Source: Rhodopirellula sp. SM50
GTDB lineage: Bacteria; Planctomycetota; Planctomycetia; Pirellulales; Pirellulaceae
NCBI RefSeq assembly: GCF_002289565.1
Contig: NZ_NTFY01000021.1
Location: 1-64,000, forward strand
Direction of reading: 5' to 3'
DNA: 64,000 nucleotides
The translations under genes and the position numbers were made by a program. This document shows, piece after piece, positions 1,334 to 63,441 of the stretch. Within the stretch, counting starts at the first letter, position 1. Every line of letters starts with the position of its first letter. The notes beneath the pieces are model-generated. The model saw only the letters and a program-made list of their open reading frames with translations. It was not told the origin of the DNA and searched no databases.

Positions 1334-1478
1334 TAGGGGTTCAGCCTGTCGGCTGTTGTGATGACAGGCTGGAAGCCTACCCCACGGTGTTTCGACAGGC
1401 TGGAAGCCTATCCCACGGTGTTTCGACAGGCGGGAGCCTATTCCACGTCGTTTCGACAGGCCAAACGCCTATCGGCAC
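1334..1478. repeat. REP-like array, unit of about 29 bases (family R)
   Basis: Four tandem units, each starting GACAGGCTGGAAGCC or a decayed form, run from 1363; one inverted piece (TTCAGCCTGTC) lies before them at about 1340. The array ends 6 bases from the stop codon of the SDR gene (minus strand). The unit is palindromic at its core. The same family occurs at 7.3, 8.4, 14.9, 26.8, 53.6 and 58.5 kb. Confidence 0.85.
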
Positions 1479-1484
1479 GGGTGG

Positions 1485-2297
1485 TTAAATGGTGACCGAT
1501 GCGAAGCCGCCATCGATCGCGATGTTTTGTCCGGTGACGAAGGACGACGCCTTTCGACTGGCCAACCAGATGGTCGCACCGGCAAGCTCTTCCGGATTGC
1601 CGAAGCGGCCCATCGGCGTGTGCCCGATGATCTGTCCGCCACGCTCGGTGTAACTGCCGTCGTCGTTGAACAGGAGTTTGCGGTTCTGTTCGGCGGGAAA
1701 GAAGCCGGGGCTGATCGCATTGACGCGGACTCCGGTGGTCGCCCATTCACGGGCCAGCCACATCGTCAAGTTGATCACCGCGCTCTTGGCCGCGGAATAA
1801 GCGACGACACGCGACAGCGGGATGATGCCGCTCATCGATGCGATGTTGATGATGCTGCCCACGCCGGCGTCGATCATGTCTTGGCCGAACACCTGGCAAG
1901 GCAACAGTGCGCCGCCGACCAGGTTCAGATCGAAAACGTCGCGCCACGCGTCCAGCGGCAACTTACAGAAATCGCCTCCCGGTGGAATCGTCGCCTCGGG
2001 GCGATTGCCGCCGGCGGCGTTGACCAGCACCGATGTCGGCGCGCCGGCCCACTGGGAAATCGCCGTCCGGGCTGAATCGAGCGACTCGGCGCTCAATCCA
2101 TCGGCGGCAAAGAATTTCGCCTCGCCGCCGCCGTCGGTGATTTTTTTGGCCCGCGCTTCACCGCGTTCGGCGTTGCGGCCGATCACAGCGACCTTGGCAC
2201 CGCCGGCGCCGAGTGCTTCTGCCATCAGCCCGCCCAATTCGCCGGTTCCGCCAATCACCGCCGCGACGTCGCTCTTGAGATCAAATAGATTATTCAT
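1485..2297 (-). CDS. SDR oxidoreductase, probable D-mannonate oxidoreductase (fructuronate reductase)
   Basis: A 270-residue classical short-chain dehydrogenase. The cofactor loop GGTGELGG is at residues 16-23, NAAGG follows near residue 93, and the catalytic set is Ser in NIASMSG with Tyr and Lys in YSAAK. The C-terminus ends in the usual GQNIAIDGG segment. The sequence resembles SDR-type fructuronate reductases (UxuB/YjmF type), which interconvert D-fructuronate and D-mannonate with NAD(H). The role is strengthened by the KDG kinase gene downstream on the same strand. ATG start at 2297. Gluconate 5-dehydrogenase or another sugar SDR remains possible. Confidence 0.72.
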   Translation of the reverse strand: MNNLFDLKSDVAAVIGGTGELGGLMAEALGAGGAKVAVIGRNAERGEARAKKITDGGGEAKFFAADGLSAESLDSARTAISQWAGAPTSVLVNAAGGNRPEATIPPGGDFCKLPLDAWRDVFDLNLVGGALLPCQVFGQDMIDAGVGSIINIASMSGIIPLSRVVAYSAAKSAVINLTMWLAREWATTGVRVNAISPGFFPAEQNRKLLFNDDGSYTERGGQIIGHTPMGRFGNPEELAGATIWLASRKASSFVTGQNIAIDGGFASVTI

Positions 2298-2347
2298 GGG
2301 CAGTAATTTAATCTGTCCGGCAGCCCGCTAACAGTGTGGGTTGGAGT

Positions 2348-3385
2348 TTACCCGCCGATCGAATACATCGGACGCTCGGGCGGAGAAAAGCCGCCGCCAT
2401 CGATCCCATGGCCGGCCGCCTTGGCCGCGACCGCCCGCCGAAACTGGTCGACCAGTTCGTCGTCGCGAAGGCCGCGCCGTAGCAAATCTCGGATCGAAAA
2501 TTCTTGCTGTGAGAACAGGCAATTTCGAATCGCGCCGTCCGCTGTTAAACGAATCCGGTCGCACGCATCACAAAACGGCTTGGTCACCGACTGGATCAGC
2601 CCGATCGAATGCCCGCCCGGCAAGCGAAAATCAGAAGCCGGCTGCGAGGCGACCGGCGGGGGAACCGGCACCAGCGGCCCAAACGCTCGCTCGATCATCG
2701 CGCCGATCGTCTCGCCGCTGAGCACGTTCTCGGTCCGCCAAGAACGGTCGGTGTCCAGCGGCATGAATTCGATAAATCGAATTTGGACGTTGCGCTCGAT
2801 CGCAAACGTGACCAGCGAGATGATTTCGCTTTCGGTGACGCCTTTGACAGCCGTCGTGTTGAGTTTGATCGTTTCGAACCCTGTCGCGATCGCGGCGTCG
2901 ATTCCGCGGATCACCTGATCGATACCACTGCGTCGTGAAACCTTCTGAAAGTTCACTTCGTCCAGCGTATCGATGCTGATGTTCAATCGCTTCAATCCGG
3001 CCCGGCGCAACGGATCGGCAAACTGCTCCAACAGAATCCCATTGGTCGTCAACGACAAATCATCCAAGGCATCAATCGACGCCAGCATCTCGACCAGTCG
3101 GGGCAGATCCTTTCGCACCAGCGGTTCGCCACCGGTCAAGCGAATGTCGCGGATCCCGCAACGCGACGTCAACACGTCGGCGATTCGTTGGATCTCTTCA
3201 AAGGTCAGCAACGTTTCCCGCGCGGCAAACTCGGCGCCGAATTCGGGCATGCAGTAAAAGCAGCGAAGGTTGCATCGGTCGGTCACGCTGATCCGTAGAC
3301 TGCGATGGACACGACCGAATCGGTCGACCAGCGGGTCGCCGATCAAACTGTCGGTTGGACGTTCGGCAGGTGGGGGTGTGATCAA
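2348..3385 (-). CDS. moaA: GTP 3',8-cyclase MoaA (molybdenum cofactor biosynthesis)
   Basis: A 345-residue radical SAM enzyme. The N-terminal cluster motif is CNLRCFYCMPE; RLTGGEPLVRKDL follows. The C-terminal second cluster is formed by CDACDRIRL plus the Cys in IRNCLF, and the protein ends in the Gly-Gly tail (MYSIGG) typical of MoaA. It turns GTP into 3',8-cyclo-GTP, the first step of molybdopterin synthesis, in the cytoplasm. The reading frame begins with TTG at 3385; no in-frame ATG precedes the conserved region. No other moa gene lies in the window. The stop is 50 bases from the SDR start, so the two may be co-transcribed. Confidence 0.95.
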   Translation of the reverse strand: MITPPPAERPTDSLIGDPLVDRFGRVHRSLRISVTDRCNLRCFYCMPEFGAEFAARETLLTFEEIQRIADVLTSRCGIRDIRLTGGEPLVRKDLPRLVEMLASIDALDDLSLTTNGILLEQFADPLRRAGLKRLNISIDTLDEVNFQKVSRRSGIDQVIRGIDAAIATGFETIKLNTTAVKGVTESEIISLVTFAIERNVQIRFIEFMPLDTDRSWRTENVLSGETIGAMIERAFGPLVPVPPPVASQPASDFRLPGGHSIGLIQSVTKPFCDACDRIRLTADGAIRNCLFSQQEFSIRDLLRRGLRDDELVDQFRRAVAAKAAGHGIDGGGFSPPERPMYSIGG

Positions 3386-3783
3386 TCGCTCGCGTCGCTA
3401 ACAGGGAACAAAGTGCAGATGCGTCAATCCGTTCGGCGCCGCTTCAGCCTAGCGGAATTGATCCAAATTTTCGACGTCCTCACTGCGCCCGGAGCCGACC
3501 GAGAGTGGCGCGAGCCGAACCACCCATTGGAGCAGCCTCGCCAGGCGATTGGATACAAACACTTACAAGATGCAGCACCCAAGGGGGGAGGGGTGGCGAT
3601 TATTTGGGACGCAAGGTCCGCGAAGCCGGCATTGCGCTTTGCATCGGGCCTTGCTTGCCGCTAATTTCGAACCTGCTGGCGGCGGTGAAATCGGCCGCGC
3701 GTCCCGCATCGCGCCGGGCTAATCCCTCTCTCGTCTTTCTATTCCCAGCCGGCGTTTTTTCAAATTCGTTCTAGGTGGTGATC
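3386..3783. other. Intergenic region between divergent moaA and the DUF1800 gene
   Basis: About 400 bases without a convincing gene. It must hold the upstream regions of both neighbours. I could not recognise a molybdenum-cofactor riboswitch or clear -35/-10 boxes by eye. Confidence 0.5.
3773..3778 (+). promoter_or_regulatory. Ribosome-binding site fixing the DUF1800 start
   Basis: AGGTGG ends five bases before the ATG at 3784. The frame is also open from a GTG at 3775, but that codon lies inside the site, so the ATG is the better start. Confidence 0.55.
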
Positions 3784-5673
3784 ATGCGCAAGCAACGCGA
3801 TCGACTTCAATGGGCTCTCTCTGCACTGTTCCTGGTCACATTGATCGGCTCGTCCTCGCTTGATCCCGCGGTTTCTCAAGCCGGTGAATTTCCGGTCAAA
3901 AGTTCGCGCGACGTGCGGCTGACGAAAGCCAAGGTTCGAGCGTCGCAGTTCCTGTCCAAAGCCACCTTCGGTCCGACCCAAGCCTCGATCGACTCACTCG
4001 CCCGCCGCATCAGTGAAGTCGGTTACAAACGCGCCACATCACAGTGGATCGATCAGCAATTCGACTTGCAGCCGACGTCACACGAAGCCGTGGCACGCGA
4101 CATCATCCACGTCGATGGACGCGAGCCGAATACCCAGAACATCGGCGTTTCTTTGTACCGCTATCAAGCATGGTGGCACATCGCGCTGACCGGTGAAGAC
4201 CAATTGCGTCAGCGGGTCGCCTGGGCACTCTCGCAGATCTTTGTCATCGGCGACTCGGGAACCGGTTTCAACAACGACGACAAGCGATCGATCGGCGGAG
4301 GGAAAGAGACGATCACTGACTGGCTGGGGATGTCCGACTATTACGACATGCTGTCCGAAGGAGTCGACGGAACCTACCGCGAACTTCTTGAAGACGTCAC
4401 CTACCATCCCTGCATGGGTGATTGGTTGAGTTCGCGAGGCAATCGCAAAGCCAACCTCAGCGCGGGGCGATTCCCCGATGAGAACTACGCGCGAGAGATC
4501 ATGCAACTGTTCTCGGTCGGTCTGTACCACATGCACCAAGATGGTCGCTTGAAGACCGATGAGGACGGTAATTTAATTCCGACCTACGACAACGAACAAA
4601 TCAAAGAACTGGGACGATTGTTCACGGGATTCAAATACAAACATTACTCTCGAAACGATTTTTACGTGCCGCGCAACTTCGGCGAACCGATGGAGATCCA
4701 TGTCGCCGAGCACGACAACAATTTGAACTACTCCGAAGACCCGGATGCTCCGGCGAGCAAGACGGTGTTCGGCACGGTGTTGCCTCCGCTGCCGTCCGCG
4801 GTGACGCAAGCGGACGTGAAAGCCGAGATCGGCGCGGGGCTCGATGCGATCGCCAACCACCCCAACGTCGCCCCGTTCATCTGCCGACTGCTGATCCAGC
4901 GGATGGTGAAATCGAATCCGTCCCGGGCCTACCTGCGACGGGTGACGCGAATCTTCAATGACAATGGCCGCGGCGTCCGCGGCGACCTCAAGGCCGTGGT
5001 CAAGGCGATCTTGACGGACCCGGAACTGTATCGCGGTCAGCGTGCGGTGCGGCGAAGGAACCCGACCCGCGTGGATGTGATCGTTCGCGGCACCGAATAC
5101 AGCCGACTGCGTGAACCGATCCTGCGTGCGACCTCCCTGATCCGAGCGATGCGGCCGACGACGAATTACGCGGCCGGCTACATGATGCTTTCTCACGGCG
5201 TCGGCGGTGAGTTTGGCCAGATGCCTTTCCGCTCGCCCAGTGTTTTCAATTTCTACCTGCCCGACTTCCAGCCCCCGGGCGACTTAATCGGTTACACGCC
5301 GACGCGGCGAAACCCCTATGACTCGTTGGTCGCCCCGGAGTTTCAAATTCTCAACGGCGTGACCGCCAACAAGACGCTGAACCGCCTGCGACTCTGGACC
5401 TACAGGCGCTACGTGCAATATGGAATGCGGAAGGGCACCTGCCGGATCACGTTTCATCTGGAACCGGAACTCGAATTGGCGAAAGACCTGGCCAATCTGG
5501 ATGAAATCCTGCGGCGTTTCGATCTTTGGTTGTGCAACGGGTCGATGAGCGAAGCGACAAAGACGAGCATCACGAATGCGATCGCAAGCGAACCGTCCGC
5601 CTCCAACGTCGAACGTCTCGAAGTGATACTCAACGCCGTGATCCTGTCCCCGGACTGCGCGGTGGAACAATAA
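3784..5673 (+). CDS. Secreted DUF1800 family protein
   Basis: A 629-residue protein starting MRKQRDRLQWALSALFLVTL, a clear signal peptide cut near the Ala before GEFPV. The rest matches DUF1800: the early block ASQFLSKATFGPT, the stretch PDENYAREIMQLFSVGLY, the TGFKYK segment and the central RLLIQRMVKSNPS block. DUF1800 proteins are encoded next to DUF1501 proteins in planctomycetes and other bacteria, as here (DUF1501 follows after 108 bases). The biochemical role is unknown; an exported, surface or periplasmic function is inferred. Length is in the family's range. Confidence 0.9.
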   Translation: MRKQRDRLQWALSALFLVTLIGSSSLDPAVSQAGEFPVKSSRDVRLTKAKVRASQFLSKATFGPTQASIDSLARRISEVGYKRATSQWIDQQFDLQPTSHEAVARDIIHVDGREPNTQNIGVSLYRYQAWWHIALTGEDQLRQRVAWALSQIFVIGDSGTGFNNDDKRSIGGGKETITDWLGMSDYYDMLSEGVDGTYRELLEDVTYHPCMGDWLSSRGNRKANLSAGRFPDENYAREIMQLFSVGLYHMHQDGRLKTDEDGNLIPTYDNEQIKELGRLFTGFKYKHYSRNDFYVPRNFGEPMEIHVAEHDNNLNYSEDPDAPASKTVFGTVLPPLPSAVTQADVKAEIGAGLDAIANHPNVAPFICRLLIQRMVKSNPSRAYLRRVTRIFNDNGRGVRGDLKAVVKAILTDPELYRGQRAVRRRNPTRVDVIVRGTEYSRLREPILRATSLIRAMRPTTNYAAGYMMLSHGVGGEFGQMPFRSPSVFNFYLPDFQPPGDLIGYTPTRRNPYDSLVAPEFQILNGVTANKTLNRLRLWTYRRYVQYGMRKGTCRITFHLEPELELAKDLANLDEILRRFDLWLCNGSMSEATKTSITNAIASEPSASNVERLEVILNAVILSPDCAVEQ

Positions 5674-7307: not shown

Positions 7308-7422
7308 GTGGCGTAAGCTTCCAGCTTGCGTTCCCGTGGCGTAAGCTGCCAGCTTGCGATCCCGTGGCGTAAGCTTCCAGCTTGCGAATGTACCCTGATG
7401 GCAAGCTGGAAGCTTCCCCCAC
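7308..7422. repeat. REP-like array, family R variant
   Basis: Three direct units GTGGCGTAAGCTTCCAGC(TTGCG) followed by one inverted unit (GGCAAGCTGGAAGCTTCCCC). It begins 5 bases after the DUF1501 stop codon and ends 4 bases before the ATG of the next small gene, so it occupies the place where that gene's ribosome-binding site should be. Confidence 0.88.
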
Positions 7423-7426
7423 CCCG

Positions 7427-8447: not shown

Positions 8448-8564
8448 GTGGGACAGGCTTCCAGCCTGTCAATCCAGTGGGATAGGCTTCCAGCCTGTCA
8501 ATCCAGTGGGATAGGCTTCCAGCCTGTCAATCCAGCGGGACGACAGGCTGGAAGCCTATCCCAC
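8448..8564. repeat. REP-like array, family R (3 direct + 1 inverted unit)
   Basis: Three near-identical units GTGGGAtAGGCTTCCAGCC(TGTCAATCCA) and one reverse-complement unit. It fills the gap between two converging genes, 5 bases after the birA stop and 6 bases from the nei stop. A bidirectional terminator role is possible because each direct/inverted pair can fold into a long hairpin. Confidence 0.92.
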
Positions 8565-13629: not shown

Positions 13630-14933
13630 GTGCTTCCCGAAAAACATTTCGTGACCGAACGATGATCGCAGTGGCGATCGCTCCGCCGATCGCGCTGCTG
13701 TTGTTCTGCGTCTCCGCAGCCGCAACCTGGCAAGCCGGTGCGGCAAAGGTCAGACCGGTGCTGGAGCAGTCGTTTCCGCCGGAGCTGATCGATTCGCTGG
13801 TTACCCAGGCCGCCGACGACGCAGACCGGGTGAGCACCGAACACACGAAATTGAGCCGAGAACTGGCCAGTGCGGCTGAGGCGCTCAACGATCAATACCA
13901 CCTCTTGTTCGACGTCCTCGAAGAACACGACGACCTGTTTGAAAATCTCGACGAAGAGCACCCGCTCGACACCTACCTGGATGACTATCTGGCCGAAGCG
14001 GCACCGTTGCTGAACTTGACGAAACAATACGCCAACGAATTCGGAAATCCCAACAGCTATTCGAGCGGACTGATCTCCTTCCGCGGATTGCCCGAGTTGC
14101 TGCGAACGGAATTTCGTGACGCCGTCCGCGACAAGCAGACCGATCGAGCGATCGAAGCATTCCGACTGTTTCAAGGACTGGGTATCGGACCAACCGGCCA
14201 AGTCTCGCTCGATCTACTTCCTTTGGTCACGCAATCGATCGCCACGGGAATTTGGAGTGAGTCCGAACTGAATGAAATCGTTCAACTGGTCAAGGCGTCA
14301 CCGGACTTGAACCAGACGTGGCAAGACAGCATTCGCTCGACGACCTTGGCGCAGGTCCCTTGGTTGCTGCGTGGAGAAGTGGTCCAGAGGTGGCGTCGTG
14401 ATCCGACGCCGAAAACGTTCGCCCCTAGTCTGCGCCTCCAATGGCTCCAGCGCAACGAAGCATTCTCTCGTGTCGGCGGGATCGGAACGTTTGACGCGAT
14501 CAAACGTGTGATGAAATTGCAAGAGACGTTTCGTCGGGAATCTGGCTCCGGGTTGGATCTGGCGCTCCAAATCCCCGCGTACAATCAATCCTACAGTCCG
14601 GGTCAATCGAAGGACTACCTGGCGACCCTCTACACCAAAGTCGCAAACGAGCGGCGACACGCCCGAACAGCTGCCGCGGTGGCCAAGTACAAGCTAAAGT
14701 TTGGCCAATACCCGATGACGCTCGATGATTTGATCAAGGTGAACTTGCCGGCCAGCGCCACGCTCGACCCGCTGGGTGTCCCCTTTCACTTCTCGTCTGA
14801 TGGAGAGACGTGTGAATTGGGAAACGCCGCGATCTGGTTCACCGATAGCCGCGGATACAGCGGAACGTTCGGCACGCGCGATGGAACACTCTCGGCGATC
14901 CTGAAACAGTTCGTGGTGCTCAAGTTTCGGTAG
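13626..14933 (+). CDS. Membrane-anchored protein of unknown function, ABC operon
   Basis: A 435-residue protein beginning at the ATG that overlaps the permease stop (ATGA). One N-terminal hydrophobic helix (IAVAIAPPIALLLFCVSAAA) is followed by a long helical exported part. Near the C-terminus KYKLKFGQYPMTLDDL plus a Gly/Asp-rich tail recalls the end of type II pseudopilins, though the N-terminal prepilin motif is missing. No family assigned. Tight coupling suggests it works with the ABC-2 system, perhaps as an extracytoplasmic partner. Confidence 0.75.
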   Translation: MSASRKTFRDRTMIAVAIAPPIALLLFCVSAAATWQAGAAKVRPVLEQSFPPELIDSLVTQAADDADRVSTEHTKLSRELASAAEALNDQYHLLFDVLEEHDDLFENLDEEHPLDTYLDDYLAEAAPLLNLTKQYANEFGNPNSYSSGLISFRGLPELLRTEFRDAVRDKQTDRAIEAFRLFQGLGIGPTGQVSLDLLPLVTQSIATGIWSESELNEIVQLVKASPDLNQTWQDSIRSTTLAQVPWLLRGEVVQRWRRDPTPKTFAPSLRLQWLQRNEAFSRVGGIGTFDAIKRVMKLQETFRRESGSGLDLALQIPAYNQSYSPGQSKDYLATLYTKVANERRHARTAAAVAKYKLKFGQYPMTLDDLIKVNLPASATLDPLGVPFHFSSDGETCELGNAAIWFTDSRGYSGTFGTRDGTLSAILKQFVVLKFR

Positions 14934-14941
14934 TCTTGCGA

Positions 14942-15028
14942 GTGGGATAGGCTTCCAGCCTGTCAATCCAGTGGGATAGGCTTCCAGCCTGTCATTGCAG
15001 TATCGACAGGCTGGAAGCCTATCCCACT
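14942..15028. repeat. REP-like array, family R (2 direct + 1 inverted unit)
   Basis: Two direct GTGGGATAGGCTTCCAGCC units and one inverted unit between two converging genes, 8 bases after one stop codon and 9 bases from the other. Confidence 0.92.
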
Positions 15029-23424: not shown

Positions 23425-23570
23425 CCGGCTCGCGCCGTTCTGCGAACGCCGGCAGGTGCTGTTAGCGGCAGGGCGCAAGCCCTCCGGTCATTCATACCGT
23501 TTTGGGGCTTACACCGGACGGCTCGCGCCGTTCCGCTAACGCCGGCAGTTGGTGTTAGCGGCGTTGGTCC
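23425..23570. repeat. Repeat family C (TTAGCGG / CGGCTCGCGCCG words)
   Basis: CGGCTCGCGCCGTTC occurs twice (23427 and 23520), each followed by ACGCCGGCAG and then GTTAGCGGC; between them lies AGGGCGCAAGCCCTCCGGT, nearly identical to an arm of the palindrome at 36981. It starts directly after the stop of the BNR protein gene. Confidence 0.75.
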
Positions 23571-23584: not shown

Positions 23585-23710
23585 GCTAACCGCTAACCGC
23601 TAACCGCTAACCGCTAACCGCTAACCGCTAACCGCTAACCGCTAACCGCTAACTGCTAACTGCTAACCGCTAACTGCTAACCGCTAACCGCTAACCGCTA
23701 ACCGCTAACC
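23585..23710. repeat. Heptamer tandem array, 18 copies of GCTAACC
   Basis: Eighteen consecutive 7-base units with only a few C-to-T variants (GCTAACT), ending at GCTATAAA. Inverted GTTAGCGG words lie about 25 and 120 bases before the array. The last unit contains the stop codon of treZ (minus strand), so the treZ mRNA would continue into (GGUUAGC)n. Confidence 0.95.
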
Positions 23711-25543
23711 GCTATAAACCCTGGCATGGTTGGAACGCAAACCACCGCTCCCCCATTCCTCACGCGAATCCAGAATCAACTCGCCATCGAAATCAACGTC
23801 GATCGAATCATCCGGCTCGATCAGCGGTGAGAGCCGAACGGCGATCGTCAGTGTCTCGTTGCCGTGGGCGTAGCGAAGCAGGTACAAACTCTTTTCCAGA
23901 TCGGTTTCGACCGCCAAGTTGGCATCGACGAGCAAGCCACTTGCACGACACCGTTTCCGCAATTCGATCAACCGGCGATACCACTGCAAGGTCACCGCAT
24001 CGCCGTCGGCACGGGAACCAATCTTGGCGGCACTGAACGAAGCGGGATCGGTTGGTAGGACGCCGAAATCCCAGTCGTGTTGCGGGTACTCGCGGCGACG
24101 CCCTTTGACAACCGCGTCGCGCAGTGCTTGATCGGAAAAATCGACGAAGAACCGAAACGGATGCTCGCACGCGAACTCTTCGCCCATGAACAACATCGGG
24201 ATCGCCGGCAACAGCATCATCAGCGCCGCGGCAGCTCGCTGGGCATCGGCGGACGTGAGCTGGTGCAAGCGGACACCGAGGGGATGGTTGCCGATGAAGT
24301 CGTGGTTCTGAATCGAATACACCAAGGCATGCGTGTCGACACGGTTGGTGGGCGTCGACCGTCGGCGTTCCTTTCGCAGGGTACCTTCGTAAACATATCC
24401 ATGCCGCAACGTGTGGTCCAAATCGATTTTAGGATGGTACGGACGATGGCAAAGCTGTTCGCCGGGGCGGAGGACAGAAAACGTGCTGTGCAAAAAATCG
24501 TCGCACCACATCGCGTCAAAACCGACCCCGCCGCTCTCACGCGGAACCGTCATTTCGGGATCATAGACATTGGATTCGGCGATCAGCATCACGTCGCGTC
24601 GGTTTTGCCGCGACCAGAACGCCACTTCGTCACTGATCTCGGCAGCCACATGGGGCTCACGATCATCCGCCATGCAATGAATCGCGTCGACACGCAACCC
24701 ATCCAGATGAAACTCGTCCAACCAGTACACCGCGTTGGCGGCAAAGAATCGTCGCACCGCATCGCCGTGAACGGGATCATCGAAATTCGGAGCATCGCCC
24801 CAAACGGTCCGATGCTTCGACGAAAGGTAAGGACCAAATTCAGACAAATAGTTGCCTTCCGGCCCCAGGTGGTTGTAAACGACATCCAAAAACACGGCCA
24901 AGCCCGCCGCATGTGCGGCGTCGACGAAGCGGCGAAAGTCGTCCGGAGCCCCGAACGCATTCATCGGGGCAAACAACGCGACGCCGTCGTAGCCCCAATT
25001 CCAGCGGCCGGCCGACGCGGCGACCGGCATCAACTCGATCGCGGTGATTCCTAATTCCACGAGTTCAGCAATTCGATCGATCGCCGCGGCAAACGTTCCT
25101 GCGTCGGTAAAGGTCCCGACGTGAAGCTCGTAAATGATCAGCTCGTCGCGACGCGGGGCGCGATAGTCCTGGTCGGTCCAGTCAAAGCTCGGATCAATCA
25201 CCTCGCTCGGTCCGTGGACCCCTTGGGGCTGAAATCGTGACGCGGGGTCCGGCCGTCGCGGTCCGTCGTCGACGCGATAAAAATAACGCGATCCCGCCGT
25301 GACTCCGGCGGCCGTCGCGTGATGATATCCGACCGAGTCCTTGGTCATTTCGATCGCTTGCGGCCCATCGACCACGTCGATGGTGACGCGATCGGCCAGC
25401 GGCGCCCAAACCGAAAAACTCGTTGACCCATCGGCCAAAGGTCGAGCCCCCAGGTGTTGGTGCACTTCGATCGCGGGGCAATTATGAAGATCAATCATCG
25501 GTTCTGATTCAGCGTGATAAAATTGAAACCGCTCTCTTAGCAT
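23705..25543 (-). CDS. treZ: Malto-oligosyltrehalose trehalohydrolase
   Basis: A GH13 enzyme of about 610 residues. An N-terminal beta-sandwich (SFSVWAPLADRVTIDV) is followed by the (beta/alpha)8 barrel with NWGYDGVALFAPMNAFG, LDVVYNHLGPEGNYL, the nucleophile region DGLRVDAIH, the acid region MLIAESNVYD and IQNHDFIGNHP. The GPEGNYL block is typical of TreZ, which releases trehalose from maltooligosyl-trehalose made by TreY. treY is not in the window. The frame is open to 25744, but the ATG at 25543 or the one at 25498 is the realistic start; both put it head-to-head with the EEP gene with a short shared promoter region. The stop codon lies inside the heptamer array. Confidence 0.88.
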   Translation of the reverse strand: MLRERFQFYHAESEPMIDLHNCPAIEVHQHLGARPLADGSTSFSVWAPLADRVTIDVVDGPQAIEMTKDSVGYHHATAAGVTAGSRYFYRVDDGPRRPDPASRFQPQGVHGPSEVIDPSFDWTDQDYRAPRRDELIIYELHVGTFTDAGTFAAAIDRIAELVELGITAIELMPVAASAGRWNWGYDGVALFAPMNAFGAPDDFRRFVDAAHAAGLAVFLDVVYNHLGPEGNYLSEFGPYLSSKHRTVWGDAPNFDDPVHGDAVRRFFAANAVYWLDEFHLDGLRVDAIHCMADDREPHVAAEISDEVAFWSRQNRRDVMLIAESNVYDPEMTVPRESGGVGFDAMWCDDFLHSTFSVLRPGEQLCHRPYHPKIDLDHTLRHGYVYEGTLRKERRRSTPTNRVDTHALVYSIQNHDFIGNHPLGVRLHQLTSADAQRAAAALMMLLPAIPMLFMGEEFACEHPFRFFVDFSDQALRDAVVKGRRREYPQHDWDFGVLPTDPASFSAAKIGSRADGDAVTLQWYRRLIELRKRCRASGLLVDANLAVETDLEKSLYLLRYAHGNETLTIAVRLSPLIEPDDSIDVDFDGELILDSREEWGSGGLRSNHARVYSG

Positions 25544-26833: not shown

Positions 26834-26836
26834 ACA

Positions 26837-26922
26837 GTGGGGTAAGCTTCCAGCTTGCCAAAGTGGGGTAAGCTTCCAGCTTGCCAACTCGCCTGAATCG
26901 CAAGCTGGAAGCTTACGCCACG
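26837..26922. repeat. REP-like array, family R (2 direct + 1 inverted unit)
   Basis: Two direct GTGGGGTAAGCTTCCAGC(TTGCC) units and one inverted unit, beginning 3 bases after the EEP stop codon and ending 25 bases before the glycosyltransferase start. Confidence 0.92.
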
Positions 26923-44462: not shown

Positions 44463-44592
44463 GGGTTTCAAGTTTCAAGTTCCAGGCACTACGTCAAATC
44501 CCAAACTTGAAACTTGAAACTTGAAACTTGAAACTTGAAACTTGAAACTTGAAACTTGAAACTTGAAACTTGAAACTTGAAACTTGAAACTT
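44463..44592. repeat. Heptamer tandem array, about 13 copies of AAACTTG, with inverted arm
   Basis: From 44503 to 44592 the unit AAACTTG repeats about 13 times without error. Before it, at 44464-44482, GGTTTCAAGTTTCAAGTT is the inverted arm, separated by about 20 bases. The array reaches exactly to the stop codon of the aldehyde dehydrogenase gene. This mirrors the array-plus-short-inverted-arm design of the other repeats. Confidence 0.95.
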
Positions 44593-48034: not shown

Positions 48035-48322
48035 GGTCAAAAGATGAGTTGGTCAAAAGATGGGTTGGTCAAAAGATGGGTTGGTCAAAAGATGGGTTGG
48101 TCAAAAGATGAGTTGGTCAAAAAATGAGTTGGTCAAAAAATGAGTTGGTCAAAAGTTGAGTTGGTCAAAAGATGGGTTGGTCAAAAGATGGGTTGGTCAA
48201 ATGATGGGTTGGTCAAATGATGGGTTGGTCAAATGATGGGTTGGTCAAATGATGGGCGAGTGATTCTCCACGAACGTACTACCCTGTTCTTTCATATTTT
48301 TTGACCACTCAATTTTTTGACC
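48035..48322. repeat. 16-mer palindromic element, expanded copy (14 direct + 2 inverted units)
   Basis: Fourteen tandem units GGTCAAAARATGRGTT (48035-48258) are followed by a spacer of 38 bases and two inverted units starting at 48297 and 48313, again exactly 16 apart. The spacer is almost identical to the one at 52.2 kb. The inverted units overlap the 3' end of the GT39-like gene and encode its last 11 residues and lie next to its stop. Confidence 0.95.
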
Positions 48323-52172: not shown

Positions 52173-52290
52173 AGATGGGTTGGTCAAAAAATGAGTTGGT
52201 CAAAAAATGGGCGAGTGATTCTCCACGAACGTACTACCCTGTTCTTTCTTATTTTTTGACCACTAAAGTTTTTGACCAAACCTCCCCACC
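52173..52290. repeat. 16-mer palindromic element, short copy
   Basis: Right after the arsM stop come two and a half GGTCAAAAAATGRG units, the 38-base spacer shared with 48.26 kb, and two inverted units (52252 on). It ends a few bases before the stop of the converging GxxExxY gene. Flanking sequence beyond the right arm (CCCCACCAAAC ... TCAAAC) also matches the 48.3 kb copy. Confidence 0.93.
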
Positions 52291-53566: not shown

Positions 53567-53582
53567 GGACCGGGGGAGCAAG

Positions 53583-53680
53583 TGGGATAGGCTTCCAGCC
53601 TGTCGATGCCGAGGATGAACGATGGGGGCAAAACGATGGGGGCAGAATGATGGGGTGGCAGAATGATGGGGGTGATGGAC
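53583..53680. repeat. Single family R unit plus decayed 16-mer-like units
   Basis: One GTGGGATAGGCTTCCAGCC unit lies 16 bases after the VOC stop. It is followed by three GGCARAAYGATGGGG units with a period of about 16 (53628-53673), which look like a divergent member of the GGTCAAAAAATGGG family. Confidence 0.7.
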
Positions 53681-55794: not shown

Positions 55795-56027
55795 GGTCAA
55801 AAAATGGGATGGTCAAAAAATGGGATGGTCAAAAAATGGGATGGTCAAAAAATGGGATGGTCAAAAAATGGGATGGTCAAAAAATGGGAGGGTCAAAAAA
55901 TGGGAGGGTCAAAAAATGGGAGGGCGGGGAGAGGACCACGGATGGCAAAGCGTACCCACGGATTCCAGGGGACGAGAAATCCGGGCACGCGATTTGTGAT
56001 ATTTTTTGACCCACCCATTTTTTACCC
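55795..56027. repeat. 16-mer palindromic element, expanded copy (8 direct + 2 inverted units)
   Basis: Eight perfect or nearly perfect units GGTCAAAAAATGGGAT (55795-55922), a 79-base spacer unlike that at 48 and 52 kb, and two inverted units starting at 56002 and 56018. This copy lies between two divergently transcribed sulfatase genes, so here it is upstream of both starts. Confidence 0.95.
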
Positions 56028-57517: not shown

Positions 57518-57549
57518 ATCTCACCATCGACCTCTGATTCAAACGCTTG

Positions 57550-58515
57550 ATGCCGAAATCGAAAGCAACCTCAAAGTTCGGCGGCGTGGGCGTCCTGGCG
57601 GCGCTCGTCGTCAGTTCGGCTTTGGCGTATTTCTGGCCGGCGTTTGGTGTCGCCTTGGATCCTTTTCGATTGAGTCCTGGGGCGCTTTCGGCACTCGTCG
57701 TGGTGACGATGTTCTGTTTGGGGTTGGTGGTTCAGCAGCATGAACTGACGGAGCTTCGGCAACGACCCTTGACCGTGTTTCTGGGCGTGGCCGTCCAGTG
57801 CACGGTGATGCCTGCGCTGGCATGGCTGGTGGTGCGGACCTTGGGACTGGATGGTCCGTTGTCCTACGGCGTGTTGCTGTGCGGTTGTGTCCCCGGTGCG
57901 ATGGCGTCGAATGTTTTGACAATGACCGCGCGGGGGAACGTCAGCTACAGCGTGAGTCTGACCTCGGTCGCGACGTTGCTGTCACCGGTTACCGTTCCGG
58001 TCGCATTGGTCGTCGTCGCGGGACTGGAGACGGGGGCCGAGGTTTTCAAACCGGCAAAGTTGGCGGTGACGTTGTTGTTGACGGTGGTGGTTCCGGTGAT
58101 CGCGGGTTATTGGGTCAAGCGACTGAGTACGTTCGTGCGACGCTATGCCCTGGTGGTCGCGCCGCCGATCGCCATCGTGGCACTGCTGTGGATCATCGCG
58201 TCGGTTGTCGCCGGTAACCGCGATCGGTTGTCTCAGGTCGCCGTCAGCTTGCTGGCGGGGCTGCTGGTCATGAATGTGCTCGGCTATTTCAGCGGTTACA
58301 CGGTCGGTCGGATCGCGCGGATGCCCGAAGCGATGCGCCGCGCGCTGACGTTGGAAGTCGGCATGCAAAACGCAGGGCTGGGGACGATGCTGGCGGCTAC
58401 CTTGTTGGGCGCCGATTCGGCGGCACAGATTCCGACCGCGGCGTATACGTTCGGCTGCATGTTGACCGGGACGCTGATCGCTGCGGTTTGGGCCGGGAAG
58501 GGGAAGGTGGGATAG
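57550..58515 (+). CDS. Bile acid:sodium symporter (BASS) family transporter
   Basis: A 321-residue membrane protein with about nine or ten helices: LSALVVVTMFCLGLVVQ, the crossover blocks GVLLCGCVPGAMASNVLT and LTLEVGMQNAGLGTMLAA are typical of BASS carriers. It probably moves an organic anion with sodium; bile acids are unlikely substrates in this organism. The last two residues and the stop codon (GTGGGATAG) are the start of a family R repeat unit. Confidence 0.9.
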   Translation: MPKSKATSKFGGVGVLAALVVSSALAYFWPAFGVALDPFRLSPGALSALVVVTMFCLGLVVQQHELTELRQRPLTVFLGVAVQCTVMPALAWLVVRTLGLDGPLSYGVLLCGCVPGAMASNVLTMTARGNVSYSVSLTSVATLLSPVTVPVALVVVAGLETGAEVFKPAKLAVTLLLTVVVPVIAGYWVKRLSTFVRRYALVVAPPIAIVALLWIIASVVAGNRDRLSQVAVSLLAGLLVMNVLGYFSGYTVGRIARMPEAMRRALTLEVGMQNAGLGTMLAATLLGADSAAQIPTAAYTFGCMLTGTLIAAVWAGKGKVG

Positions 58516-58635
58516 GCTTCCAGCCTGTCGGTCCACTGCTGCTGGCAGGCTGGAAGCCTGTTCCACGGAACGCAAGCTGGAAGCTTACGCCACCGAACGC
58601 AAGCTGGAAGCTTACGCCACGGAACGCAAGCTACG
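58507..58635. repeat. REP-like array, family R (1 direct + 4 inverted units)
   Basis: One direct GTGGGATAGGCTTCCAGCC unit, then one inverted unit of the same subtype, then three inverted units of the GCAAGCTGGAAGCTTACGCC subtype (the last truncated). It fills the gap between the converging BASS and lipoprotein genes and supplies the BASS stop codon. Confidence 0.92.
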
Positions 58636-58640
58636 GCGCG

Positions 58641-59342: not shown

Positions 59343-59448
59343 GGTGGACTCCGGGGGGCGGTGGACGGGCGGCGTACTTCAGCGGTCACTCCTAGCAAAA
59401 CGAATGGGGCAACGTCAATTGCCGCTCGCCGACGTGTCGCACCGGGGG

Positions 59449-59529
59449 CATCTCAGCACGTGGCGTCAGCCAGTGGCGAGTGAGAGTTGTGGTTTCGACA
59501 CGCGCCGCTCGCTGACGCGTCCCGCTGGG
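59449..59529 (+). repeat. Module B only copy of the dispersed composite repeat
   Basis: CTCAGCACGTGGCGTCAGCC to CGCGCCGCTCGCTGACG matches module B at 60230 and, reversed, at 17600-17677. It is directly followed by the CGTCCCGCTGGG word that ends the whole element elsewhere, as if module A had been lost. It lies downstream of the ECF sigma gene. Confidence 0.8.
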
Positions 59530-59543
59530 GTGTGATGCGTCGA

Positions 59544-60152
59544 TCACGGCAATTCGCTCAGTCGTTGTCTTAACTTGCGCAAGACGCGAGATTTGGCCTG
59601 ATAGACGCTCGCGACGGACAACCCCGTCCTCTCGGCGACCAGTGATGCCGGTTGATTCTCCATCGTCGAGATCCAGAAAGCGTTCCACGTCGCCGGTTCA
59701 AATTCGTTTTCGACCGATTTCAAGACTTGGCGCACCACCGGGCTGCTGATCGAGTCGCCGTCGATCGATTCATCCAATGAGTCCGCTTTCTGTTGCAGTC
59801 GCGTCAACGCTTCGGTGCCGCCTTCGGCCGGTTGTCGGCCGGCGAGTCGTCGAAAGTGATCGCGGACGCGATTCCGCGTGATCGTGGCCAGCCAGCTGCG
59901 AAAACTGCCGGATTCCTTTTGACGCTCGAAGCCCGAAATGCCCCGCGCGACCGACGCGAAGATGTCTTGGACGACGTCCGGCGCGTCACTTTCGGCGACG
60001 CCGGAGGTTCGGCACCAGCGATACACGATCGGCCCGAACGTTTCCACCAGCCGGCTCCACTGGGCCGGATCGTTCTGTTTGACGCCCTCAAGAAACGGGT
60101 GTGACAGCGTCGGGTGTTCGGGGCGGCGGCGGTCGTCGGGGGTGGCATTCAT
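59544..60152 (-). CDS. ECF-type RNA polymerase sigma factor linked to a Ser/Thr kinase gene
   Basis: About 202 residues from the ATG at 60152. Region 2 shows as RLVETFGPIVYRWCRTSGV and PDVVQDIFASVARGI; region 4 as PATWNAFWISTMENQPASLV and ERTGLSVASVYQAKSRVLRKL. Planctomycete ECF factors of this look are often encoded next to Ser/Thr kinases. Here the kinase gene diverges from it across a composite repeat, and that kinase begins with a ZAS-like zinc motif, so it is a candidate anti-sigma partner. Confidence 0.92.
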   Translation of the reverse strand: MNATPDDRRRPEHPTLSHPFLEGVKQNDPAQWSRLVETFGPIVYRWCRTSGVAESDAPDVVQDIFASVARGISGFERQKESGSFRSWLATITRNRVRDHFRRLAGRQPAEGGTEALTRLQQKADSLDESIDGDSISSPVVRQVLKSVENEFEPATWNAFWISTMENQPASLVAERTGLSVASVYQAKSRVLRKLRQRLSELP

Positions 60153-60229
60153 AAGGAAAAGTCTAACCAAATTTTCTTCCGGAATTTGGTGTCAGACGTC
60201 CGCGTTTATCCAAGTGGCAAGACGCACAC

Positions 60230-60429
60230 CAGCACGTGGCGTGAGCCAGTGGCGGGTGATGGCTGTGTTTTCACCATGCGCCGCTCGCTGACCAGCTTGT
60301 CGATTGAATCGGGATCTGCGGAGTCAATGGTGAGCCGCTGGCCGTAAGGCCTCGGGCGGGCGCCGAAATGCCCGGCCGCTTACGCGTCGCGGCTCACTCA
60401 ATCGACAGCCCGTGACGCTTCCCGCTGGG
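60230..60429 (+). repeat. Composite dispersed repeat (modules B+A), reference copy
   Basis: About 200 bases: module B (CAGCACGTGGCGTGAGCC to CGCTCGCTGACC), then module A (GAGTCAATGGTGAGCCGCTG ... CTTACGCGTCGCGGCTCAC) and the end word CCCGCTGGG. The 17.5 kb copy is its inverted counterpart. It occupies the divergent promoter region between sigma and kinase genes. Confidence 0.85.
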
Positions 60430-60483
60430 ATGACAGGCTGGGGTGCCGATCCCACGTTAATGCTTGAACCTGATCCCAAACCT

Positions 60484-60490
60484 GAGGAGA
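60484..60490 (+). promoter_or_regulatory. Ribosome-binding site fixing the kinase start
   Basis: GAGGAGA lies 5 bases before the ATG at 60496. The frame stays open upstream to 60412 through repeat sequence, so this site decides the start. Confidence 0.7.
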
Positions 60491-60495
60491 ATACG

Positions 60496-63054
60496 ATGAT
60501 GACAGCGACCGAGTGCCCGACCGTGGAACGATGGAGAGCGTATTCGCTCGGGTGGCTGCCCGATGCCGAAAACGACGAGCTCTTTCAACACCTGCGGTCC
60601 TGTTCCACCTGCCAGGCTGAACTGGAAACCGTTGATGATGCCGAAGACTCGCTGATCAGTGAGCTCCGCGTCGCCGATCCCCACGCCGGCCTTTCGGAGG
60701 AACCCGATTGCAAGCTCGCGATGGCGAAGGCGCTCGGCGCTCTCGCGGCGTCGGACGAACTTTCCGAGACCGGGATGCACCACATCCCCCGCACGATCGG
60801 CGAGTACGAAATCGTCCGGTTGCTCGGCCGTGGCGGGATGGGCAAAGTTTACTTGGCGCGACACAGCAAGCTCGGGCGTCACGTCGCGGTGAAGTTGCTG
60901 TCGGGACATCGTTTGGCTGATCAACGCAGCCGCGAACGTTTTGATGCCGAAATGCGCGCCGTCGGCCAATTGAGCCATCCCAACATCGTCACGGCGCACG
61001 ACGCCCGCGAGATCGAAGGCAGGGCGGTGTTGGTGACCGAATACATCGACGGGTTGGACTTGGGCGAGTTGGTCGCCCGGGGCGGACCGCTCCGCATCGC
61101 TGATGCCTGCGAGATCATTCGCAAGGTCGCCGCGGCGCTGCAATACACCAGCGATCAAGGGTTTGTGCATCGCGATGTCAAACCGTCCAACATCATGATC
61201 AGCCGCAATGGCGAAGTGAAATTGTTGGATCTGGGACTGGCACGCTACCAGAGTGGGCGGGAAAGCGAATTGACGGCGGCAGGACAGGCGATCGGGACGG
61301 CGGACTATGTTTCACCCGAGCAGGTCACCGATGGTCGAGACGTTGATTGCCGATCGGATGTCTATTCGCTCGGATGCACCCTGTTCAAGCTGCTTTCGGG
61401 CAATGCACCGTTTGCCGACCAGACGCACCAGACGGTGTTCGCCAAGATGACCGCCCATGTTTCTGAACCGCCACCGAGTCTGGGCGAACGTGTTTCGGAT
61501 TGTCCGTCCCCGTTGGTCCAACTGGTCGATTCGATGTTGGCCAAGGATCCGGCCAAACGTCCGCAATTACCCGGCGACGTCGCCGCGGCACTAGCACCTT
61601 GGGCCTCCGGGCATGAATTGGCGCGTTTGGTCGAAGACGCGTCCGCTGCCGAAGCACAAACACAACCCTTACCGCCATCGACGTCGGCACAGGTCAAGCC
61701 GTGGTCTCGACGCTCGGTCCCGTTGACCATGGCGATCGCTTCGGGAGTGCTGGGAGTCCTCATCGGTTTGCTGATGGGCTTGTTTATCAAAATCACCTTT
61801 CCCGACGGGACGGTGTTTCAAGCACCGCTGGATGGCGCCACCATCGAAGTCGTGCAAGGAGACGATGCCGACGCCGCGGACGCGGAAGCGGCAGACGTCG
61901 CCCTGCCGGCCGCCAAAGAACAATTGGCCCGGCAGGCAATGATGCGGCACAGCGACGTGCTCGAAAAATTGTCGGGAATCTGGCTGTTGGTCGGATACAA
62001 ACAACCCAACAGCGTCCTGCCCGATGGCATGTTGCTGGCCATCGATCAAACTGAATTCTATGCCGTGACCAAACAAAACGCTCAGGCGGACCTCCACGTC
62101 TCCGCCGGTCAGTTCACCAGAATCCAGCGGGATCAAAAGGGGCTGAATTTGCTGGCGGTCGACGAAGTGACGGGGAATCGCATCTCGGTCGGCTGTCAGT
62201 TCCCCGATGAATCCTCCATGGTGTTTCAATTTGATCCCTTCCTGGACACTGCCGAGATGCCGTTTCAGGGCCGGCTGAGAAACCAAGGGAAGGGGCACCA
62301 GTATCGATTCAAAAAGCTGGGGGCATTTTCCGAGATCAATCAAATCCCGCCGACGGGTCCCGATTCAGATGAAGCCCAGGCGCTCTCGATGATTCGGCAA
62401 CTGAAAACGCTGGGAGTCGATCAGTATCTCAAACAACACGGTGACCCGACCAGCGCGCCGGTACAGCAACAGCGTTCGGTGAACAACTTGCAGCAGATCG
62501 GACTCGCGTTTCACAACTTCCACGCGGTCTATCGCAAATTCCCCGGTTCGGTCAACGTGCAGGAAGGGGCCGTGGGAGCGGGAAAGAAAAAGATCCACCC
62601 CTTCAGCTGGCGCGTCGCGATCCTGCCGTTCGTGGAGGGGGCTTTGTTGTACGAGCAGTACAGGTTTGACGAACCCTGGGACAGCGAAAACAATCGCAAG
62701 CTGCTCGATCAAATGCCGGAAGTCTATCGCAGTCCAAACGCGCCCGAAGACCAACCCAGCGGTCACACGAATTACCTCGGTTTTGCGACGGGCAACAGTG
62801 CGCTCGGAACCGAAGGCGGAGTTGGATTGCGGGATTTCGTCGACGGCACCAGCAATACGCTGCTATTGATTGAAACGAAGAATAGCGTGCCGTGGACCAA
62901 GCCGGAGGATCTGAGCTGGAGTGATGACATCGAGTTCTTCGATCCGGTGACGTACCTGATGGCCGACGGCAGCGTGCGTCGGACGGAGAAACTCGATCCG
63001 GAGTTGCTCAAGAAACTGATCACCCGCGACGGTGGCGAGGTGATTCCTCGTTGA
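60496..63054 (+). CDS. Ser/Thr protein kinase with N-terminal zinc anti-sigma-like motif and DUF1559-like tail
   Basis: An 852-residue protein. Residues 25-50 contain HLRSCSTC, the HxxxCxxC pattern of zinc anti-sigma domains. The kinase domain (about 105-365) has LLGRGGMGKVYLARH, AVKLLSG, catalytic FVHRDVKPSNIM and DLG in place of DFG (LLDLGLARY). One membrane helix (MAIASGVLGVLIGLLMGLFI) is near residue 420. Outside follow a lipocalin-like region (LSGIWLLVGY) and a DUF1559-like domain (NNLQQIGLAFHNFHAVYRKF, FVDGTSNTLLLIE, TYLMADGSVRR). It likely senses an envelope signal with the outer part. It diverges from the ECF sigma gene. Regulation of that sigma by the N-terminal motif is inference. 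Confidence 0.92.
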   Translation: MMTATECPTVERWRAYSLGWLPDAENDELFQHLRSCSTCQAELETVDDAEDSLISELRVADPHAGLSEEPDCKLAMAKALGALAASDELSETGMHHIPRTIGEYEIVRLLGRGGMGKVYLARHSKLGRHVAVKLLSGHRLADQRSRERFDAEMRAVGQLSHPNIVTAHDAREIEGRAVLVTEYIDGLDLGELVARGGPLRIADACEIIRKVAAALQYTSDQGFVHRDVKPSNIMISRNGEVKLLDLGLARYQSGRESELTAAGQAIGTADYVSPEQVTDGRDVDCRSDVYSLGCTLFKLLSGNAPFADQTHQTVFAKMTAHVSEPPPSLGERVSDCPSPLVQLVDSMLAKDPAKRPQLPGDVAAALAPWASGHELARLVEDASAAEAQTQPLPPSTSAQVKPWSRRSVPLTMAIASGVLGVLIGLLMGLFIKITFPDGTVFQAPLDGATIEVVQGDDADAADAEAADVALPAAKEQLARQAMMRHSDVLEKLSGIWLLVGYKQPNSVLPDGMLLAIDQTEFYAVTKQNAQADLHVSAGQFTRIQRDQKGLNLLAVDEVTGNRISVGCQFPDESSMVFQFDPFLDTAEMPFQGRLRNQGKGHQYRFKKLGAFSEINQIPPTGPDSDEAQALSMIRQLKTLGVDQYLKQHGDPTSAPVQQQRSVNNLQQIGLAFHNFHAVYRKFPGSVNVQEGAVGAGKKKIHPFSWRVAILPFVEGALLYEQYRFDEPWDSENNRKLLDQMPEVYRSPNAPEDQPSGHTNYLGFATGNSALGTEGGVGLRDFVDGTSNTLLLIETKNSVPWTKPEDLSWSDDIEFFDPVTYLMADGSVRRTEKLDPELLKKLITRDGGEVIPR

Positions 63055-63087
63055 GGAAGAGGCGCGGAGATGGCAGGGAAATGGTGG

Positions 63088-63441
63088 GGCAGAAAAATGG
63101 GTGGGGATGGAAAGACAAGAAAATGGGTGGCAAGAAAATGGTGCCGGTGATTTATTTTCTTGTCACCGATCTTCCTGTCTACTTCGGACACTTCTCGCTG
63201 TGCGCCACCACATTTGATTCAATACGTCCGTTGGACGACGGGAAATGGGTCAAAAAATTGGGTGGTCAAAAAATGAAGAGTTCCGCCAGGGGGAGCCAGA
63301 TATTATTCGCCGGGAACGCCAACGAGACACTGAATCGACAACTGCAGTTCGGCACGGCCGTTGTGGTTGCTTCTCATTGATTCACCCGTACTCGTGTGCT
63401 GTGTCTCTTTTCTTATTTTTTGACCAACCAATTTTTTGACC
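63088..63441. repeat. 16-mer palindromic elements, two nested variants
   Basis: First, GACAAGAAAATGGGTG and GCAAGAAAATGG (63114-63141) with an inverted ATTTTCTTGTC at 63154-63164 (perfect 11-base stem). Second, two GGTCAAAAAATKGG units at 63248 and 63264, a spacer of about 136 bases, and inverted TTTTTTGACC units at 63416 and 63432, exactly 16 apart. The last unit ends 3 bases from the stop of the next gene. The whole gap of about 390 bases holds no convincing gene. Confidence 0.88.

What the first reader, a model, noticed from the sequence alone, without database searches (positions are those of the whole stretch)
1334..63441. Palindromic intergenic elements whose one arm is amplified and the other is not
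At least four unrelated unit sequences show one design: n direct units, a spacer, then one or two inverted units. Unit ~29 bases: 3+1 (7308, 8448), 2+1 (14942, 26837), 1+4 (58507). Unit 16: 14+2 (48035), about 2.5+2 (52173), 8+2 (55795), 2+2 (63248). Unit 7: AAACTTG 13 versus about 2.5 (44463) and GCTAACC 18 versus single inverted words (23585). Period is kept exactly in the inverted arm of the 16-mers. Shared architecture across different sequences points to a common copying mechanism acting on hairpins, such as slippage on one arm, or to a trans-acting enzyme, rather than to inheritance of one repeat.
Basis: partly seen in the sequence, partly recalled or inferred. Interest (0 to 1): 0.72.

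Follow-up and report, generated by a model that had tools for sequence, protein, structure and literature searches.

The report
Inverted repeat pairs expanding one-sidedly
Short repeats between genes of this marine planctomycete come as facing pairs, and in many places one side of the pair has grown into a long row; one group is a known kind of repeat, another is a distinctive paired-site family whose job is unknown.

Summary
The repeats are real but are three different things. (A) The 26-31 base units are REP/BIME elements: GTGG tag, covarying stem, mostly beside stop codons. (B) The 16-base units belong to a distinctive family: two direct 11-mers (GGTCAAAAAAT, period 16) facing two inverted ones. 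(2,2) is the basic form. Of 104 elements with at least two units per arm, 34 have one arm expanded (to 21 units) and none has both. Other dialects keep the plan; GGCARAANNAT doublets occur in 20 of 100 sampled genomes of the family, own included. Orthologous loci show class B growing in place from (2,2). The 11-mers are 95.5% conserved between species against 68% for spacers, yet arms do not covary, so the sites look recognised by sequence. (C) Heptamer arrays; there both arms can grow. One-sidedness exceeds independence only modestly (1 both-arm case against 6.8 expected, P about 0.01), and expanded arrays without a partner exist, so slippage within one arm suffices. No hairpin-copying enzyme is shown. 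Y1 transposases exist but mostly sit inside other repeats.

The parts
1337..1461 (-). Class A (REP): one degenerate direct copy, then 3.2 inverted copies (period 31)
7308..7422 (+). Class A (REP/BIME): 3 direct + 1 inverted, starting 6 nt after the end of a called gene
   Evidence: fold z -6.45
8448..8564 (+). Class A (REP/BIME): 3 direct + 1 inverted, starting 6 nt after the end of a called gene
   Evidence: fold z -9.35
14941..15027 (+). Class A (REP/BIME): 2 direct + 1 inverted, between convergent genes
26836..26922 (+). Class A (REP/BIME), second stem subfamily: 2 direct + 1 inverted
   Evidence: fold z -7.79
53582..53604 (+). Class A single REP
58507..58632 (.). Class A mixed: 1 direct, 1 inverted of same subfamily, 2 inverted of the other, 1 truncated
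48035..48322 (+). Class B element, T1 unit GGTCAAAAAAT period 16: 14 direct + 2 inverted, 42-nt spacer
   Evidence: orthologues (10,2), (2,2), (2,2)
52182..52277 (+). Class B element: 2 direct + 2 inverted; spacer homologous to 48035
   Evidence: orthologue (6,2); fold z -5.18
55795..56027 (+). Class B element: 8 direct + 2 inverted; another palindrome (CCCACGGAT family) lies in the spacer
   Evidence: orthologues (2,2), (2,2)
63248..63441 (+). Class B element: 2 direct + 2 inverted, 140-nt spacer, carried in a longer dispersed repeat
63114..63179 (+). Class B element of another dialect (GACAAGAAAAT / GACAGGAAGAT, period 15): 2 + 2
53617..53672 (+). Class B dialect arm (GGCAAAACGAT / GGCAGAATGAT), 3 clear units and a degenerate one, no inverted unit within about 500 nt
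44463..44592 (+). Class C heptamers: about 2.5 inverted AAACTTG, a spacer, 12.9 direct copies
23585..23714 (+). Class C heptamers GCTAACC x 18.6, no comparable inverted arm

Best explanation
Three unrelated kinds of intergenic repeat share one look. Class A is a GTGG-tagged REP/BIME family. Class B is a family of sequence-recognised sites whose basic form is two direct 11-mers (16 bases apart) facing two inverted 11-mers; an unidentified protein, probably one per dialect, most likely binds the four sites (inferred). Class C is heptamer arrays. A pre-existing inverted pair is the starting form (shown by orthologues for class B, inferred for A and C), and single arms later expand in place, unit by unit, most simply by replication slippage or unequal exchange within the direct repeats of one arm (inferred). 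An arm that has started to grow would grow faster while the other usually stays at its base number (inferred), so the element looks one-sided. A mild extra deficit of two-sided growth may reflect loss of long palindromes (inferred). No hairpin-copying enzyme is required.
For: Shown: base form and one-arm expansion. In-place change at orthologues, e.g. 48035 (14,2)/(10,2)/(2,2)/(2,2), 55795 (8,2)/(2,2)/(2,2), C104:340677 (2,5)/(2,2)/(2,3). Class A: 152 of 168 tag-blind hits carry GTGG, three of the five stem pairs left free by the pattern covary, 94 of 154 distances to a 3' end are 30 nt or less (my own gene calls). Class B: no covariation between arms (one-sided changes 61 and 36, matching double changes 1 and 0 for outer and inner units); units 630/660 identical between orthologues, spacers 582/853, adjacent 40 nt 857/1200, flanks 140-340 nt away 5025/6000. 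Expanded arrays without a partner exist. Independence of arms predicts few double expansions.
Against: The both-arm deficit is larger than independence predicts (P 0.008 pooled; orthologues are counted more than once). The same arm is expanded in 4 of 4 loci where two species are expanded, which could mean polarity, though shared ancestry explains it. The binding protein is not identified. Slippage itself was not observed. The one class B element folded has a strong predicted fold (z -5.18), so a hairpin role is not excluded. Unit conservation is partly a matter of ascertainment, since elements were found by their units.
Confidence: 0.6

Rival explanations
1. One reading: a copying process acts on the hairpin and duplicates units on one arm only, across unrelated sequences.
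For: 1 both-arm expansion against 6.84 expected over 192 elements; same architecture in several dialects; the arms of the one class B element folded can pair (z -5.18), as can three class A clusters (z -6.45 to -9.35).
Against: 11 of 12 unpaired expanded T1 arrays have no partner doublet within 450 nt, one of them at a contig end. Expanded arms are unpaired at least as often as unexpanded ones (12 of 46 against 25 of 199, P 0.04; with the contig-end array and the one with a distant partner dropped, 10 of 44, P 0.10; elements with a one-unit arm left out). Arms do not covary. Both arms grown in one class A locus; opposite arms grown in two species at the heptamer locus.
Confidence: 0.15
2. Class B elements are miniature transposons whose ends carry two transposase sites each, as in the ends of large DDE elements (recalled); the enzyme acts in trans.
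For: Two-sites-per-end layout, inverted between ends. Copies with homologous spacers: 14 of 44 own spacers fall into three groups of 10, 2 and 2, the largest carried in a longer dispersed repeat. Tandem alternating clusters in another genus.
Against: 30 of 44 own spacers match no other. 15 long-range arm pairs were seen in 2.42 Mb plus 79 relative loci; of the three inspected, one encloses a lactonase-family gene, one a HicA/HicB-type pair and a DUF6941 gene, one only other repeats: no transposase. Elements persist at orthologous sites with conserved units. Two loci lack a recognisable element in the own genome; one shows decayed remains, the other did not align clearly, so no clean empty site.
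Confidence: 0.2
3. All classes are mobilised by Y1 (RAYT/TIRYT/IS200-type) enzymes.
For: 8 Y1 matches in the genome; one of three proteins tested resembles the RAYT model below its cut-off, 53.3 of 80 bits, the other two pass the IS200/IS605 model; doublet-positive genomes of the family have more Y1 genes (median 8 against 2, P 6e-5; at least 6.5 Mb: 8 against 5, P 0.007). For class A the fit is natural.
Against: Seven of the eight Y1 loci have other inverted repeats around the gene (by eye) and no class A or T1 copy within 1.5 kb; 17 doublet-negative genomes have 8 or more Y1 genes; class B units are not tagged hairpins. Phylogeny was not controlled.
Confidence: 0.2
4. Class B elements act as RNA hairpins (terminators or mRNA stabilisers).
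For: Strong predicted fold of the one class B element tested; convergent pairs hold 15 of 47 own elements against 18% of intergenic bases.
Against: No compensatory changes; 7 of 47 lie between divergent genes; no Rfam match in the window at gathering threshold.
Confidence: 0.08

Closest known systems
REP / BIME elements (GTAG superfamily; PMC3733652 and PMC8266576, passages seen)
   Same: Class A: tetranucleotide tag, imperfect palindrome, high copy, intergenic, inverted pairs with tags outside, often in tandem. GTGG variants are reported for Opitutus terrae (passage in PMC3733652).
   Different: Tag GTGG instead of GTAG; no Y1 gene convincingly flanked by it; expansion mostly of one member of the pair.
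TIR families of TIR-associated tyrosine transposases (PMC3733652, section 16 read)
   Same: Dispersed inverted repeats present as dimers and clusters, unrelated to REP tags.
   Different: Class B units do not flank 7 of the 8 Y1 matches of this genome; the eighth has one unpaired T1 doublet about 1.2 kb away.
MITEs (recalled; one passage in PMC3733652)
   Same: 70-300 bp, inverted ends, no coding capacity, some copies with homologous spacers.
   Different: Ends are doublets of one 11-mer; 30 of 44 own spacers match no other; no autonomous copy seen; no target duplication shown.
Heptameric intergenic repeats (STRR of cyanobacteria, recalled; TAACTGA repeats, PMC4679880, passages seen)
   Same: Class C: tandem 7-mers between genes.
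   Different: Different words; inverted words beside some arrays (6 of 13).

Membership tests
REP (class A) | Conserved tetranucleotide tag before the palindrome | tested here: met
   152 of 168 tag-blind hits carry GTGG; two permuted tags on the same core 0 against 231
REP (class A) | Imperfect palindrome maintained by pairing | tested here: met
   Pair 1 GC 136 / CG 82, pair 2 GC 111 / AT 108, pair 5 GC 113 / AT 96 of 231; pair 3 a T-G wobble in 211; the three pairs nearest the loop are fixed by the search pattern
REP (class A) | High copy number, intergenic | tested here: met
   288 copies in 133 clusters in 2.42 Mb; 125 of 133 clusters assigned to an intergenic region by my own gene calls
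BIME (class A) | REP and inverted REP combined | tested here: met
   60 direct-then-inverted clusters, tags outside; one mixed cluster departs; 72 clusters are single or direct only
REPtron (class A with RAYT) | RAYT gene flanked by the REP | tested here: inconclusive
   None within about 1.5 kb of 7 of 8 Y1 matches; three copies near L008, about what the density of one cluster per 18 kb would give
REP (class B) | Unit is a tagged, self-complementary hairpin kept by pairing | tested here: not met
   11-mer is not self-complementary; arms do not covary
TIR family of a TIRYT (class B) | Repeat flanks a Y1 gene | tested here: not met
   0 of 7 Y1 loci carry T1 units within 1.5 kb; L008 has one T1 doublet about 1.2 kb away, without inverted partner
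MITE (class B) | Target-site duplication and related autonomous element | tested here: inconclusive
   Two candidate empty sites, neither clean; no transposase between the arms of the three long pairs inspected
Heptamer repeats (class C) | Tandem 7-mers in several places of the genome | tested here: met
   13 period-7 arrays in 2.42 Mb; gene context was looked at only for the two in the window

The most novel reading that the evidence does not exclude
Class B marks a new chromosomal system of Pirellulaceae: a set of paralogous DNA-binding proteins with genus- and type-specific 11-bp dialects, each needing two direct sites facing two inverted ones, with the chromosomal sites kept by selection; the limit of expansion to one arm reflects how the protein bridges the four sites.
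Probability: 0.25. Interest if true: 0.75.

Novelty: new variant of a known kind. Interest (0 to 1): 0.5.

Why it matters
Class B gives orthologous, countable loci where the gain of repeat units on one arm of an inverted pair can be followed between species, and a conserved four-site code with dialects that points to an unknown binding protein. Six sequence words of classes A and B were searched in the open-access full texts: none of the 18 hits looked, from title and start of abstract, like a paper on bacterial intergenic repeats. Topic searches showed nothing on these sequences in their listings; a survey of prokaryote satellites, PMC6749651, counts 29 satellites in Rhodopirellula baltica, and the passages I saw do not describe these elements. 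That is a limited search, not proof that it is not in print.

Tried and rejected
Hairpin-specific copying: weakened by partnerless expanded arrays and by absent covariation. Strand polarity: the expanded strand lies on the locally G-rich strand in 17 of 26 cases, P 0.17; GC skew is noisy, so undecided. Autonomous transposon: the three long arm pairs inspected (of 15 listed) enclose no transposase. Y1 terminal repeats: different sequences (only the first eight matches per locus were printed, judged by eye). Rfam: no match in the window. Viral collection: 0 exact matches of the T1 doublet. Cut-site idea for GTGG tags (CC expected from PMC8266576 passages): C is common 4 and 5 nt after the stem (94 and 132 of 231), but the CC dinucleotide is not outstanding, so left open. 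Gene neighbours of the large clusters in another genus: 10 of the 41 ORFs listed were scanned, 8 fall in ordinary families and 2 match nothing, no enzyme candidate. pair columns were offset by one and are replaced. Rows left out of the both-arm counts: 3 own and 20 relative T1 elements with a one-unit arm, 4 of the latter with an expanded other arm. Many own stretches were chosen because they held T1 or class A matches, so densities there are biased upward. Other-dialect arms were mostly unpaired (99 unpaired arms against 23 pairs), which is against a strict facing-pair rule for those dialects; in one other genus doublets occur in the same direction only.
Full report
What the window is. The window is contig C61 of a 9.8 Mb genome in 146 contigs. 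Loci with the same 16-base doublet come from Stieleria sedimenti, Planctomycetes bacterium TBK1r and Rhodopirellula sp. JC639 (the listing of PMC12254169 names JC639 Stieleria mannarensis), so the genome is very likely a Stieleria (Pirellulaceae; lineage).

Checking the observation. A general test on 2.42 Mb of the genome shows that tandem arrays of period 14-17, 7 and 26-31 have inverted copies of their unit nearby more often than controls (64/166 against 7 and 13; 6/13 against 1 and 0; 23/55 against 8 and 3). For period 26-31 part of the signal comes from the unit being palindromic itself.

Class A is a REP/BIME family. A tag-blind search finds 168 copies in 1.65 Mb, 152 of them with GTGG in front. 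With the tag required there are 231 copies in 2.42 Mb against none for two permuted tags; three stem pairs covary while pair 3 stays a T-G wobble in 211 of 231. Copies occur alone, in tandem, or as direct-then-inverted clusters with the tag outside (60 of 133 own clusters; one mixed cluster), close to stop codons (median 17 nt by my own gene calls). GTGG-tagged REPs are reported for Opitutus terrae, a Verrucomicrobium, in PMC3733652 (passages seen); PMC8266576 (passages seen) shows that a GTGG variant of a REP can still be cut.

Class B is a family of facing doublets. The unit is the 11-mer GGTCAAAAAAT, twice in direct order 16 bases apart, a spacer (11-235 nt, mostly 33-58, in 44 own elements), then twice inverted. 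Position frequencies over 82 distinct elements are above 96% at ten of the eleven positions. Of the 44 own spacers, 14 fall into three homology groups (10, 2 and 2) and 30 match no other. The same plan occurs with other units in the same genomes: GGCAGAAAAAT, GACAAGAAAAT, GGCAGAATGAT, GGCAAAACGAT, GGCAGAGGAAT and GGTAGGAAGAT, periods 14-16, although for these dialects most arms are unpaired (99 unpaired arms, 23 pairs). At C35:143656 one dialect is nested in another, and at C35:176201 two are interleaved. GGCARAANNAT doublets occur in 20 of 100 genomes drawn from the family, own included, with a single match in the reversed controls of the 100, and in 7 of 294 genomes drawn from the phylum, own included, again with one control match. 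The T1 doublet, with up to two mismatches, is found in 2 of the 100 family genomes, own and one weak match. The two other genomes placed in the same genus have neither.

One arm grows. Among T1 elements with at least two units per arm, 44 own and 60 from relatives, 34 have one arm above two (up to 21 units) and none has both. Among other dialects 7 of 23, none both. A whole-genome pattern in four genomes (spacers 28-58, exact at the specified bases) lists 28 hits, and no element is hit on both strands. Under independence 3.52 both-arm cases are expected in class B (P 0.03); with class A, 6.84 against 1 seen (P 0.008). Orthologues are counted more than once in these figures, so the true strength is lower. 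Long arrays are not only a draft-assembly effect: a 16-unit T1 array lies in the single-contig TBK1r chromosome.

Growth is in place. Eleven orthologous loci with counts in two to four species show different unit numbers at the same place: window 48035 (14,2) against (10,2), (2,2), (2,2); 52182 (2,2) against (6,2); 55795 (8,2) against (2,2), (2,2); C104:340677 (2,5) against (2,2), (2,3); C35:89248 (7,2) against (4,1); C1:208498 (2,4) against (2,2); C54:111533 (2,6) against (2,3); C57:35346, 8 units on one arm against (2,2); C104:122963 (2,2) against (2,3); C104:331351 (2,2) against (3,2); and the heptamer locus 44463. Other orthologous loci have equal counts or a decayed unit, and two (L130:5797 and L166:1691) have no recognisable element in the own genome, without a clean empty site. 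Where two species are expanded it is the same arm in 4 of 4 class B loci; common descent or polarity could explain this.

What the units do. In 15 orthologue comparisons the 11-mers are 630/660 identical, spacers 582/853, adjacent 40-nt flanks 857/1200, and flanks 140-340 nt away 5025/6000. The comparison leans towards the units, since the elements were found by them. If pairing of the arms were kept, changes should match across arms: there are 61 one-sided and 1 matched change for outer units, 36 and 0 for inner ones, no more than shuffles give. In another genus the two arms carry different dialect words. I read the units as sequence-recognised sites. The protein is unknown. The one class B element folded as RNA nevertheless folds strongly (z -5.18; three class A clusters z -6.45 to -9.35).

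Looking for an enzyme. The genome has 8 Y1_Tnp matches. Of three proteins tested, one resembles the RAYT model below its cut-off and two pass the IS200/IS605 model. Inverted repeats bracket seven of the eight genes, and they are not class A or T1 sequences (I judged by eye from a cut listing). L008 has three class A copies and one unpaired T1 doublet about 1 kb away. Doublet-positive genomes of the family carry more Y1 genes, but without phylogenetic control, and 17 negatives carry 8 or more. No autonomous class B element was found among the three long arm pairs inspected.

Class C and others. At 44463 the sedimenti orthologue has the left arm expanded in larger compound units and about five right-arm heptamers, so both arms can grow. 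GCTAACC at 23585 has no comparable arm.

Verdict. The likely cause is ordinary growth of direct repeats starting from inverted pairs that are there for other reasons: REP biology for class A, an unknown recognition system for class B. The second is the part worth following.

Noticed in passing
L220:7754-12785, L221:9656-17742, L223:4106-5411 (another genus of the family): Long clusters of facing doublets in alternating orientation every about 180 nt, like tandem BIMEs, with different words on the two arms.
   Followed up: partly
L229:4452-4517, L230:6162-6227, L232:8696-8761 (another genus): Doublets point outwards with a 12-nt loop, the reverse of the Stieleria geometry.
   Followed up: no
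L224:6658-6808 and 14010-14160 (another genus): Pairs of doublets in the same direction about 110 nt apart instead of facing each other.
   Followed up: no
own C109:88037-88337, C54:7873, C118:2784; window 55795 spacer: A further palindrome family, CCCACGGAT twice at period 20 with a loop of about 15 nt, also inside class B spacers.
   Followed up: no
own C54:21845, C1:159875, and fetched stretches of C133 and C57: GTAG-tagged hairpins (GTAG + GTCACGC-TGT-GCGTGAC and GTAG + GGCATGC-TGT-GCATGCC), looking like classic GTAG REPs.
   Followed up: no
window 23455-23560 and own C104:272914: A repeat with GGGCGCGAGCCCTCCGG flanked by TTAGCGG; the GCTAACC heptamers start beside it.
   Followed up: no
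L001-L007: Y1 transposase genes bracketed by inverted repeats of their own, like the TIRtrons of PMC3733652.
   Followed up: partly
own C104:82181-82791: A 413-bp tandem duplication carrying a whole (2,2) element; nine further or related own spacers in the same group, among them window 63248, C35:168317 and C109:50966 (the group has 10 members in all).
   Followed up: partly
own C35:140521-141043: A HicA/HicB-type gene pair between two GGCAGAAAAAT arms about 1.8 kb apart.
   Followed up: no
L198:4502-4528: One exact T1 doublet in a Hodarchaeaceae MAG contig, possibly chance or contamination.
   Followed up: no
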